A stretch of DNA of 64,000 bases, from positions 124,001-188,000 of the forward strand of contig NZ_FSRE01000001.1 of the NCBI RefSeq assembly GCF_900141795.1, written 5' to 3'. The DNA comes from Sulfurivirga caldicuralii (GTDB lineage: Bacteria; Pseudomonadota; Gammaproteobacteria; Thiomicrospirales; Thiomicrospiraceae). Position 1 is the stretch's first letter; every line of letters starts with the position of its first letter. The notes under the pieces are model-generated. The model ran no database searches. It was not told the origin of the DNA and saw only the letters and a program-made list of their open reading frames with translations. A program made the position numbers and the translations under genes. Shown one piece after another: positions 5,804-25,973 of the stretch.

Positions 5804-8002
5804 ATGGACGACGTCTCATTTCTACTCAACGATCTCAATGATGCACAACGCGAAGCGGTCACCCTGCCGGTGGATACCCATGCGCTGGTGTTGGCGGGCG
5901 CCGGCTCCGGCAAGACGCGCGTGCTGGTGCATCGTATCGGCTGGCTGGTGGAGGCGCTGGGCGTGTCGCCCTACAACATTCTGGCGGTCACCTTTACCAA
6001 CAAGGCCGCTAGCGAAATGCGCGGGCGGGCGTTCGACCTCATCGGCGGCAAGGCGGAGGGGCTGACGCTGGGCACCTTTCACGGCATCGCCTATCGCCTG
6101 CTGCGCCAGCACTGGCAAGAGGCAGGCCTGCCGCAGAACTTTCAGGTGATCGACAGCGACGATCAGAAGCGCCTGCTCAAGCGCCTGCTGCGTGATCTGG
6201 AGCTGGACGAACAGCAGTGGCCGATGCGTCAGGTGCAGAGCTTTATCAACGGCAACAAGGAAGAAGGGCTGCGCGCCGCCCATATCGATCCGCAGCACAA
6301 CCCCTTTGTGGAGACGTTGCTGCGTGTTTATCGCGCCTATGAGCAGCAGTGCCAGCAGAACGGACTGGTGGACTTTGCCGAGCTGCTGCTGCGCGCCCAT
6401 GAACTGTGGCTGAAGAACCCGCGGCTGCTGGCGCACTATCAACAGCGCTTTCAGCATATTCTCGTGGACGAGTTTCAGGACACCAATGCGTTGCAGTACG
6501 CCTGGCTGCGCGTGCTGGCGGGCGGCACCGGGCGGCTGTTCGTGGTGGGGGATGACGACCAGTCCATCTATGGCTGGCGCGGCGCGCGCGTGGAGCATGT
6601 GCACCGTTTCAGCGACGACTTTGCCGATGTGCGCCTGATCCGGCTGGAGCAGAACTACCGCTCCACCGCCACCATCCTCAAGGCCGCCAATACCCTAATT
6701 GCCCACAACAGCGGAAGGATGGGCAAGAACCTGTGGACCGCCGGCGAACAGGGCGCGCCCATCCGCATTTACCGCGCCTTCAACGAACTGGAGGAGGCGG
6801 ACTTTGTGGTGCGGCAGGTGGAGCGCTGGCTCGAGCGCGGCGGCAGCCGGGATGACGTGGCGGTGCTGTACCGCTCCAATGCCCAGTCTCGGGTGCTGGA
6901 ACAGGCGCTGCTGCGCGCCGGCATTCCCTATCGTGTCTATGGCGGCCTGCGCTTTTACGAGCGGGCGGAAATCAAGGACGTGCTTGCCTACCTGCGCCTG
7001 CTGCTCAACCGCGACGACGATGCCAGTTTTGACCGCGTTATCAACAACCCGCCGCGGGGTATCGGCGCGCGTACGCTGGAAACACTGCGCGCTGAAGCGC
7101 TGGCGCAGGGCGTGTCCCTGTGGCAGGCGGCACAGCGATTGCTGGCGGCGGGGCGTCTTGCCGCCCGAGCGGCCGGCGCCGTACAGGGCTTTCTTGACCT
7201 GATTGACCAGCTGGCGGCGGACACCGCCGACATGCCGCTGGACCAGCAGGTGATGACCGTCATCAGTCGCTCCGGCCTGCAGACCCATTTGGAGAAGGAT
7301 GAGCACAAAAGTGAGCAGGCGCAATCGAAACTGGAAAACCTGGATGAATTGATCAATGCGGCGGCGCAGTTCCGCCCCGGCGAGGACGCCGCTGACGAAA
7401 CGCCTCTGCAGGCATTCCTCAATCAGGCGGCGTTCGAGGCAGGCGAGCATCAGGCGGCGCAGTGGGAAAGCTGCGTCCAGCTGATGACCCTGCACGCCGC
7501 CAAGGGGCTGGAGTTTCCCCTGGTGATCATGACCGGGCTGGAAGAGGGGTTGTTCCCCTCGCAGCAGTCCATAGACGATCCGGCGCGGCTGGAAGAGGAA
7601 CGCCGTCTCGCTTACGTGGGCATTACCCGTGCCCGTGAAGAACTGGTGATGACCTGGTGCGAAAAGCGCCGCTGGCACGGACAGGAGCGCTTTCCCCTGC
7701 CGTCGCGCTTTCTGTCCGAATTGCCGCCCGATTGCGTGGAAGAAATCCGTCCAAAAGCCTCCGTACGCCCTGCAGGCGCGCTGGGGGGCGGCTTCGGCGC
7801 AGGCGGGTGCAAAAGCGGTTTGCAAAAAGTCGGGGCCCCCCCTTTCTCCATCGGCGACCGGGTGCTGCACGGCCGCTTTGGCGAGGGGATTGTCATCGGA
7901 CTGGAGGGGGATGGGCCGCAGGCACGGGTGCAGGTGCATTTCGATGAGCACGGCAGCAAGTGGCTCATGCTCGCCGTGGCAAAGCTGGAGAAGCTGGGGT
8001 GA
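5804..8002 (+). CDS. uvrD: DNA helicase II, UvrD, with a repeat-derived linker segment
   Basis: The 732-residue superfamily 1A helicase has Walker A AGAGSGKT (31-38), motif II DEFQDTN near residue 221, [12 protein letters not shown] (motif III), motif [13 protein letters not shown] and motif [13 protein letters not shown]. It unwinds DNA 3' to 5' in nucleotide excision and mismatch repair. A C-terminal Tudor-like domain ([15 protein letters not shown] onward) follows a glycine-rich linker. Bases 7807-7845 of that linker match the dispersed GTCGGGG-type repeat and encode about 13 residues around [13 protein letters not shown]. The gene overlaps fetA by one base (TGATG). Confidence 0.96.
7807..7845 (+). 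repeat. Dispersed GTCGGGG repeat, copy A, inside uvrD
   Basis: The stretch reads GCAAAAG, CGG, then GCAAAAAGTCGGGGCCCCCCC and TTTC. It parallels the intergenic copies at 16419, 36659, 43096, 58795 and 59686, with one A replaced within the GGGGACCCC core. It lies in frame within the inter-domain linker of UvrD. Confidence 0.65.
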
Positions 8003-18748: not shown

Positions 18749-18996
18749 TATCCCACAAGAGGAGGCATGGCCGTTCGGCCTTGTTCGAACCTTTTTCCGT
18801 CAGGTGCGGGTCATGACTGTTCAATCTATGGACTGGTCCTGTCTTACATTGTCCAGCCTTTGCTATGAGGGGGGCGCGTTTCAGGTTGCCCTGATATGAG
18901 TGCGGTTTATTGCCGCAAAATTATTTTGATTGTCTTTTTGTGCGCGCTGTTTTTAATATGGGGTTGCCTCATACAAATAACAGGAGGAAGGAGACC

Positions 18997-19424
18997 ATGA
19001 AGAAAACACTTCTGGCGCTGTTTGTGGCCGGGTTCATGGGATTGAGTGCGCAGCAGGCCAGTGCCGGGTGCTGTGGCTTTGGCAATGACGGTCCGTGGGA
19101 TGACAACGACTGGCCGGAATGGACGCCCATGTATTGGATGGAAGAGTTTGCGGACGAGTTCGATGACGATGATGACTATTATGGTCCGCCGCCGTGGGCG
19201 TATGCTGGTTATCCGCCCCCCCGGCTTATTACGGTGCGCCACCTGCCTATGGGCCACCGCCAGGGTACGGACCACCCCGGGGTTATGCGCCCCCGCCAGC
19301 ACCGCAGGGCTACGCGCCGCCACCCCCTCCACCGGGTTATGCCCCCCCTCCGCCTCCCCCCGGCTTTGGTCCCGGGGCCATGCCCCCACCGCCACCGCCC
19401 GGTTACGCACCGCCTGCACGCTAA
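18997..19424 (+). pseudogene. Sulfur-globule-like secreted protein, reading frame shifted at a C7 tract
   Basis: A strong AGGAGGAAGGAG site precedes ATG 18997. The frame gives a signal peptide (MKKTLLALFVAGFMGLSAQQASA), then GCCGFGNDGPWDD, DWPEWTPMYWMEEF, an Asp run and YYGPPPWAYAGYPPP. At the C7 tract (19216-19222) the sensible frame changes: the +1 frame continues with about ten tyrosine/proline/glycine repeats (YYGAPPAYGPPPGYGPP, GYAPPPPPPGYAPP) and ends at TAA 19422. One extra C would restore a ~143-residue protein. Composition and the WTPMYWMEE motif resemble sulfur globule envelope proteins, which would suit the metabolism. It may be phase-variable, mutated or a sequence error; if unshifted, the frame runs to 19485. 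Confidence 0.7.
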
Positions 19425-19435
19425 CGCGTTGCATC

Positions 19436-19464
19436 AAAAAGCCCGCCACTCTGGCGGGCTTTTT
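19436..19464. terminator. Bidirectional terminator
   Basis: AAAAAGCCCGCC and GGCGGGCTTTTT arms lie between the sulfur-globule-like gene and the convergent PilZ gene. Confidence 0.88.
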
Positions 19465-19485
19465 GATTGCGAGGCAGTGAGTTGA

Positions 19486-19821
19486 TCAGGCGCTGATCAG
19501 GTGCTCGAAGACCTGTTCATAGTCTTCATTGGTTTCCTTGAGCTCCACCCCTACGTGATAGGCCTGCTCCATGGTGTCGATGCAGTGACGCACAACCCCG
19601 GTAAAGAGGTAGTCATGGAAGCGATGATCTTGGTTGTCTTCCACTTCAAAGTGCACTTCCAGTTGAGCCCCTTCTGGAACCGGTTCCTGGCTGAACAGTC
19701 CCACACCCTTGAGAGACAGGTCGCTGGTTGTGCCGAAAACGGTGTGGTCGTTGGGCATTTTTATAATGATGGGACGGTTGACGGGTACGCGCGTATGCGC
19801 ACGGCGTTCTTCTGGTGTCAT
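19486..19821 (-). CDS. PilZ-domain protein
   Basis: The 111-residue protein is a single PilZ domain with the RRAHTRVPV (RxxxR) motif near the N-terminus and SDLSLKGVGLF (D/NxSxxG) near residue 35, the two elements that bind cyclic-di-GMP. It is the likely receptor for some of the GGDEF/EAL enzymes in this window. It is a stand-alone gene with no adjacent pilus or flagellar genes, so its target is unknown. The start ATG at 19821 has AGGAAG upstream on the minus strand. Confidence 0.9.
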   Translation of the reverse strand: MTPEERRAHTRVPVNRPIIIKMPNDHTVFGTTSDLSLKGVGLFSQEPVPEGAQLEVHFEVEDNQDHRFHDYLFTGVVRHCIDTMEQAYHVGVELKETNEDYEQVFEHLISA

Positions 19822-24620: not shown

Positions 24621-25973
24621 ATGACTGATAATCGCGTTGAAGAAAAGGTTGCAGTGCAATCCGAGGAGAGCCGCAGCCAGAGCCGCCGCGCTTTTCTGAA
24701 GGGTTCTGCGGCCGTCGCCGGTGGCGTGCTGTTTACCAAGGCAGCCTCCGCCGACTATGATCCCAAGAAGGCTGTGGCGCCTTACGCGGGCGAAAAGGAA
24801 ATTACCGAGCCGCTGCAGGACGGCCCCTGGCGCAAGCGTCTGGGTTTCGGTGTGCGTCGTTACCCCTATGGCGTCCCCTCTCCCTACGAGAAGGACGTGC
24901 AGCGCCGCACGCTGGAGTGGCTGACGCCTGACTCCATGGCGTCCATCACCATGACACCCATTCAGAGCCTGCACGGTATCATTACCCCGAACGGCCTGCA
25001 CTTCGAGCGTTTCCACGGCGGTGCCGCGGATATCGATCCCAAGACCCACCGTCTGGTGATTCATGGTCTGGTTGAGCGCCCGCTGATCTTCACCGTTGAT
25101 GATCTGAAGCGCTTCCCCTCCATTTCCCGCATCCACTTCATCGAGTGTCCGGCCAACGGCGCGATGGAATGGAAGGGCGTGCAGCTGAACTCCGTGCAGT
25201 GGACGCACGGCATGATGTCCTGCGTGGAATACACCGGTGTTCGCCTGTCTGACCTGCTCAAGGAAGCTGGCATCAAGCTGGACAAGGCACGCTGGATTAT
25301 TCCTGAAGGTGCGGACGCATCCGGCATGTCCCGCTCCATTCCGCTGGAAATTGCTATGGACGACTGTTTTGTGGCCTATGCGCAGAACGGTGAAGCACTG
25401 CGCCGCGAGCAGGGTTATCCCATCCGCCTGGTGGTGCCGGGCTGTGAAGCCAACATGTGGGTGAAATACCTGCGTCGCATCAAGGTTACAGACGTACCGC
25501 TGCAGCACCGTGAAGAAACTTCCAAGTACACCGAGCTGATGCCGGATGGTACGGCCCAGCGCTTCTCCTGGTACATGGAACCCAACTCCGTGATCACCTA
25601 CCCGTCTCCTGACTACCGCATGCAGGGTCCGGGCAAGTACTATGTACGTGGTCTGGCATGGTCCGGTCGCGGCAAAGTCGCCCATGTGGATGTATCCTTC
25701 GATGGCGGCAAGAACTGGCACGAGGCGCACTTCACTTCGCCGGTACTGGACAAGGCATGGACCCGTTTCGAGATCGAATGGGATTGGGATGGCAGCGAGG
25801 CTTTCCTGATGAGCCGTGTTACCGACGAAACCGGTTACGTACAGCCGCCCATGCCGCAAATGCGTGCAGTGGAAGGTACCAACAACGTTTACCACCGTAC
25901 TGCGATGGTAACGTGGCGCGTACATGCCTGGGATAGCAAAAACGGAGGCTTGATTGAAAATGTTCAGTACTAA
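24621..25973 (+). CDS. soxC: Sulfane dehydrogenase subunit SoxC (molybdenum cofactor)
   Basis: The 450-residue protein has a Tat signal (SRRAFLKGSAAVAGG) at about 24-38, a molybdopterin domain with the HFIECPANG cysteine motif and the C-terminal dimerisation domain (GLAWSGRGKVAHVDVSFDGG). SoxC with SoxD oxidises the sulfane sulfur held on SoxYZ, yielding six electrons. The ATG at 24621 follows AAGGAGC; an upstream in-frame start at 24579 would lengthen the Tat leader. No other sox genes are nearby, so the pair is separate from any soxXYZAB cluster. The stop overlaps soxD. Confidence 0.95.
   Translation: MTDNRVEEKVAVQSEESRSQSRRAFLKGSAAVAGGVLFTKAASADYDPKKAVAPYAGEKEITEPLQDGPWRKRLGFGVRRYPYGVPSPYEKDVQRRTLEWLTPDSMASITMTPIQSLHGIITPNGLHFERFHGGAADIDPKTHRLVIHGLVERPLIFTVDDLKRFPSISRIHFIECPANGAMEWKGVQLNSVQWTHGMMSCVEYTGVRLSDLLKEAGIKLDKARWIIPEGADASGMSRSIPLEIAMDDCFVAYAQNGEALRREQGYPIRLVVPGCEANMWVKYLRRIKVTDVPLQHREETSKYTELMPDGTAQRFSWYMEPNSVITYPSPDYRMQGPGKYYVRGLAWSGRGKVAHVDVSFDGGKNWHEAHFTSPVLDKAWTRFEIEWDWDGSEAFLMSRVTDETGYVQPPMPQMRAVEGTNNVYHRTAMVTWRVHAWDSKNGGLIENVQY

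What the first reader, a model, noticed from the sequence alone, without database searches (positions are those of the whole stretch)
18997..19424. Sulfur-globule-like gene switches frame at a C7 tract
The N-terminal frame gives a signal peptide and WTPMYWMEE motif. A Tyr/Pro/Gly-repeat tail is intact only in the next frame, with the change at 19216-19222. A tract of eight Cs would restore one protein. Such a tract may be a phase-variation switch that turns a secreted or globule-coating protein on and off, a ribosomal slippage site, or an error.
Basis: partly seen in the sequence, partly recalled or inferred. Interest (0 to 1): 0.65.

Follow-up and report, generated by a model that had tools for sequence, protein, structure and literature searches.

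The report
Broken frame in secreted repeat-tail protein
A small secreted protein found in many sulfur-oxidising bacteria is knocked out of frame by one missing base in a run of Cs in this genome; intact versions exist in every sister species, so this is most likely a one-base slip (in the cells or in the assembly) rather than a proven genetic switch.

Summary
From ATG 18997 the gene encodes a Sec-type signal peptide and a DWPEWTPMYWMEE motif. At C7 19216-19222 the Pro/Tyr/Gly tail passes to the -1 frame and runs to TAA 19422-19424, just before a terminator (19436-19464). The tail frame has 77% P/Y/G and third-position drift; none of 2000 shuffles matched it.

The protein belongs to a family with no Pfam or NCBIfam model, present in 62 GTDB loci (Thiothrix, Thiolinea, Thiofilum, Cocleimonas, Thiotrichaceae MAGs, Thiomicrospiraceae). 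Sixty of these show no break in the sequence available, as do all three congeners. A congener carries TAC-CCG-C8-G in frame, where the window has TAT-CCG-C7-G. A C8 tract would therefore restore the ordinary family protein.

A one-base contraction, in the cultured clone or in the assembly, explains everything. Nothing here shows a switch: the tract is short and not conserved, no C/G tract of 8 or more visibly breaks a gene in this genome, and there is no slippery heptamer or unusual downstream fold. Out of frame, the next stop lies past the terminator. "Sulfur-globule protein" remains unproven: the genome has soxB and soxC and lacks dsrA, and no homology to SgpA-D was tested. Read data would settle the tract.

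The parts
18982..18993 (+). Ribosome-binding sequence (AGGAGGAAGGAG) upstream of ATG
   Evidence: Read directly from the sequence
18997..19065 (+). Sec-type signal peptide MKKTLLALFVAGFMGLSAQQASA (cleavage expected after ASA, by eye)
   Evidence: Translation; the same layout in the homologues. No signal-peptide predictor was available.
19066..19215 (+). Conserved mature N-terminus with the family motif DNDWPEWTPMYWMEE and an acidic stretch DEFDDDDDYY
   Evidence: Alignment A1: N37, P40, W42, T43, P44, M45, Y46, W47, E50, D53 and D56 invariant in 9 sequences
19216..19222 (+). C7 tract where the reading frame passes from frame 0 to -1
19218..19424 (+). Pro/Tyr/Gly-rich tail in the -1 frame, ending with TAA 19422-19424
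   Evidence: matches the tails of relatives
19436..19464 (+). Intrinsic terminator AAAAAGCCCGCCACTCTGGCGGGCTTTTT, symmetrical, between convergent genes
   Evidence: (MFE -28.3 kcal/mol, z -6.3). The pattern scan did not list it; its stem takes in the T run.
19223..19485 (+). Out-of-frame continuation of frame 0 (Arg/His-rich); its stop 19483-19485 lies beyond the terminator

Best explanation
The locus is one gene for a small exported protein of a family found in sulfur-oxidising Thiotrichales and related Gammaproteobacteria: signal peptide, WTPMYWMEE motif, acidic patch, low-complexity tail. Its intact form almost certainly has a tract length that keeps N-terminus and tail in one frame, most simply C8. 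The assembled C7 is a one-base contraction in a slip-prone Pro-codon tract. It either arose in the sequenced clone or population, or is an indel in the assembly; the data cannot separate these two. It is not a programmed device. In the C7 form, translation runs out of frame through the terminator region without meeting a stop, so little or no functional protein is expected. Shown: the frame break, the family, intact relatives, a C8 in-frame precedent. Inferred: C8 as the ancestral state, loss of product, periplasmic or surface location.
For: Intact single-frame homologues: G001-G003 (same genus), G006, G007, G017, G021, G044, and 60 of 62 loci of genome contigs with no break in the sequence available. 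Congener L021 has TAC CCG CCC CCC CCG (C8) in frame, directly comparable with the window's TAT CCG C7 G. The tail still shows coding periodicity in its own frame and no stops, so the break is recent or not real. The gene is single copy in the genome. The same kind of break, one base lost in the tail's tandem repeat, is seen in Thiothrix lacustris L069, so the tails are slip-prone or hard to assemble. None of 22 separate C/G tracts of 8 or more elsewhere in the genome breaks an identifiable gene.
Against: No reads and no second genome of this species were available. The assembly looks good (7 contigs, completeness 99.99%, contamination 0.01), which argues somewhat against an assembly error. A C8 tract is about the length at which meningococcal tracts become predominantly variable (PMC5084427), so a switch is not excluded. 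A local codon-usage score does not prefer the tail frame, because the tail uses unusual codons.
Confidence: 0.78

Rival explanations
1. Phase-variation switch: the tract alternates between C8 (on) and C7 (off) at high rate, and this gives the population an adaptive mix of cells with and without the secreted protein.
For: Pure C tract in a coding region of an exported protein; restoring length C8; homopolymers of 8 or more were predominantly variable in deep-sequenced Neisseria meningitidis (PMC5084427); a sibling species has a C8 in a similar context.
Against: The tract is short and not conserved in position among relatives. No other C/G tract of 8 or more visibly interrupts a gene in this genome. 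The off form lacks an early stop and would give a run-through product past the terminator rather than a clean off state. The tract is a by-product expected from Pro codons: a second C7 lies at 19342 in the same tail.
Confidence: 0.12
2. Programmed -1 ribosomal frameshifting at the C7 joins the two frames.
For: P-site tRNA-Pro could re-pair on CCC; the tail is kept in the -1 frame.
Against: Frame-0 heptamers are G CCC CCC and C CCC CGG, neither an X XXY YYZ site. Downstream RNA folds no better than shuffles (z +1.07). All relatives encode the protein in one frame, so no frameshift arrangement is conserved. No Rfam match.
Confidence: 0.03
3. Established pseudogene: the species has lost the protein and the gene is decaying.
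For: One frame-disrupting change in a single-copy gene; the genome has soxC and lacks dsrA, so sulfur storage may be dispensable.
Against: Everything else is intact: ribosome-binding sequence, signal peptide, motif, tail periodicity, stop and terminator. An old pseudogene would show more damage.
Confidence: 0.07

Closest known systems
Sulfur globule envelope proteins SgpA/SgpB/SgpC/SgpD of Allochromatium vinosum
   Same: Small, Sec-exported, repetitive, with regularly spaced prolines (PMC10386293). Relatives of the window protein occur in known sulfur-globule formers (Thiothrix, Thiolinea, Thiofilum).
   Different: No homology was shown or tested by sequence. The WTPMYWMEE motif and acidic patch define a separate family. 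This host has soxC and no dsrA, and no relative labelled Allochromatium or Beggiatoa was found by the motif scan.
Putative sgp genes predicted in Thiothrix caldifontis (six) and Thiolinea disciformis (one), mentioned in PMC10386293
   Same: Both organisms carry members of this WTPMYW family (L041, L036). In both, the next gene also encodes an exported, repetitive protein.
   Different: Whether the published predictions are these very genes could not be checked; the cited review was not read.
Poly-C/G contingency loci (Neisseria, Campylobacter)
   Same: Intragenic homopolymer whose length sets the reading frame.
   Different: Those tracts show length polymorphism between strains and among reads. 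Here there is one sequence, a short tract and no conservation.

Membership tests
WTPMYW exported family (defined here) | Signal peptide followed by [ND][DN][WY]P[ET]WTPMYW | tested here: met
WTPMYW exported family (defined here) | Low-complexity P/Y/G/N/M-rich tail in the same frame | tested here: not met
   The tail is present but one base out of frame. Membership of the gene is clear; the assembled allele is broken.
Sulfur globule proteins (Sgp) | Sec signal peptide for export | tested here: met
   By eye on the translation, with the same layout in homologues; no predictor run
Sulfur globule proteins (Sgp) | Repetitive sequence with regularly spaced prolines | tested here: met
   Tail repeats, compared with the description in PMC10386293
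Sulfur globule proteins (Sgp) | Sequence homology to SgpA, B, C or D | not tested
   No Sgp sequence was fetched; no Pfam or NCBIfam family hit
Sulfur globule proteins (Sgp) | Found on purified sulfur globules or needed for their formation | not testable with these tools
   Needs proteomics or a deletion mutant
Phase-variable homopolymer locus | Tract length polymorphism within a strain or between strains | not testable with these tools
   Only one genome of the species was available; no reads
Phase-variable homopolymer locus | Tract conserved in relatives | tested here: not met
   No tract at the homologous position in most relatives; one congener has a C8 in a similar context, in frame
Programmed -1 frameshift | X XXY YYZ slippery heptamer and a stimulatory downstream structure | tested here: not met

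The most novel reading that the evidence does not exclude
A C7/C8 contingency tract switches a globule-associated or surface structural protein on and off in a chemolithotrophic sulfur oxidiser, with an off state whose ribosomes run off a stop-less message. It would be the first such switch known to this report for a sulfur-storage or matrix protein.
Probability: 0.1. Interest if true: 0.6.

Novelty: new member of a known kind. Interest (0 to 1): 0.3.

Why it matters
The frame break alone is ordinary until reads are seen. The gene it led to is more useful: a conserved exported protein family, with no Pfam or NCBIfam model, spread over Thiothrix, Thiolinea, Thiofilum, Cocleimonas and many uncultured MAGs. 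It is a plausible candidate for a sulfur-globule envelope or surface matrix protein, testable in cultivable Thiothrix strains.

Tried and rejected
Viral contigs: 65 pattern matches, no relative. PDB: no meaningful match. Pfam and NCBIfam on the N-terminus, on the window tail and on intact homologues: nothing significant. Gene neighbourhood: housekeeping genes that differ between clades, apart from a second exported repeat protein next door in some genomes, e.g. L019, L033, L036, L037, L041 and L069. RNA structure downstream of the tract: no better than shuffles. Rfam: none. Codon-usage scoring of the tail against frame 0 was uninformative.

Full report
What is there. The gene starts at ATG 18997, behind AGGAGGAAGGAG. 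It encodes a signal peptide and MKK...ASA|GCCGFGNDGPWDDNDWPEWTPMYWMEEFADEFDDDDDYYGPPPWAYAGYPPP, and then meets C7 at 19216-19222 in the register CCG CCC CCC CGG. From there frame 0 becomes Arg/His-rich and does not stop until 19483-19485. The -1 frame reads AYYGAPPAYGPPPGYG...GYAPPAR* and stops at TAA 19422-19424. A strong symmetrical terminator follows at 19436-19464, before a convergent gene on the minus strand (19486-19821). So only the tail frame stops before the end of the expected transcript; the assembled frame 0 would run into the terminator.

Is it more than chance? Yes. The tail frame has 53 P, Y or G among 69 codons. In 2000 dinucleotide shuffles the best open frame averages 28 and never exceeds 38. 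In the tail frame, third codon positions are almost random (1.99 bits) while the first two are constrained (1.50, 1.42), the signature of a protein kept in that frame. A simple codon-usage score did not separate the frames, because the tail uses many otherwise rare Pro and Gly codons.

Host. The window is part of a 1.67 Mb, 7-contig genome with completeness 99.99%. The genome holds soxB and soxC, the latter 5 kb downstream in this window at 24684-25928, and has no dsrA match.

Relatives. Eight relatives found by the genome search encode the same layout in a single frame: three congeners, four members of the same family, and one more distant genome. A motif scan of 84,980 GTDB species gave 62 loci, in Thiothrix, Thiolinea, Thiofilum, Cocleimonas, Thiotrichaceae and other Gammaproteobacteria MAGs, Thiomicrospira and Hydrogenovibrio MAGs, and a MAG labelled Methylophaga. 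In 60 of them no frame break is visible in the sequence available; a few are cut by contig ends or runs of N. The two exceptions are Ca. Thiothrix singaporensis L039, with several shifts, and Thiothrix lacustris L069, with one base lost inside the 18-bp tandem repeat of its tail. In an even draw of 274 genomes of the class, 19 genomes in 13 of 222 genera carry the motif. Tails of near relatives are P/Y/G-rich, those of Thiothrix and Thiotrichaceae richer in N, G and M. No Pfam, NCBIfam or PDB relative was found. In at least three Thiothrix species, in a MAG close to them (L037), in Thiolinea and in Cocleimonas, the next gene encodes another exported repetitive protein.

The tract. Congener L021 has TAC CCG CCC CCC CCG, a C8, in frame in its tail; the window has TAT CCG followed by C7 and GG. 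C8 is thus the simplest intact state, though C5 or C11 would also keep the frame. Elsewhere in the genome there are 22 separate C or G tracts of 8 or more (28 overlapping matches). They lie between genes or inside continuous frames, and none visibly breaks a gene. Several of them belong to a species-specific repeat described under Noticed in passing. In Neisseria meningitidis, homopolymers of 8 or more were predominantly variable in deep sequencing (PMC5084427), so occasional C8-to-C7 slips are expected without any need for selection.

How it most likely works. An exported, tail-bearing structural protein, whose exact role is unknown; the globule or surface-matrix role is inferred from its layout and from the biology of its carriers. 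The C7 allele is expected to give little or no functional protein. Whether C7 is in the cells or only in the assembly is open. Ribosomal frameshifting is unlikely: no canonical heptamer, downstream fold no better than shuffles, no conservation. Phase variation remains possible at about 0.12.

Comparison with the known. Sgp proteins of Allochromatium are Sec-exported, repetitive, with regularly spaced prolines; predicted sgp genes are said to number six in Thiothrix caldifontis and one in Thiolinea disciformis (PMC10386293), both of which carry this family. That is a resemblance, not a test. A soxC-bearing, dsrA-lacking host is not the textbook globule former (general knowledge), so the globule label should be held loosely for this species.

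Noticed in passing
Window near 7825 (variant), 16438(+), 36678(+), 43116(-), 58802(-); genome-wide: A short motif, AAAAGTCGGGGACC (often AAAAAAGTCGGGGACCCCCC with a second A tract about 16 bp upstream), has 138 exact copies in this genome, none in three congeners or in other sampled members of the family. Over the first listed copies it recurs about every 11.4 kb with spacing far more even than random (CV 0.52; 0 of 5000 random sets as even). Origin and role unknown; a REP/MITE-like mobile repeat or a positional signal are guesses.
   Followed up: partly
L069:3956-4480: Thiothrix lacustris carries an independent one-base loss in the tail's tandem repeat of the same gene family, putting its last third out of frame.
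   Followed up: partly
L019:4556-5284, L033:4500-5165, L036:4478-5089, L037:4465-5208, L041:4502-5218, L069:4567-5250: Next to the WTPMYW gene in several Thiothrix relatives, Thiolinea and Cocleimonas lies a second exported, W/G/N/M-rich repetitive protein; the two copies scanned (L036, L041) have no significant Pfam or NCBIfam match.
   Followed up: partly
24684-25928: soxC (sulfite dehydrogenase SoxC, 604.6 bits, over the curated cut-off) lies 5 kb downstream of the finding.
   Followed up: no
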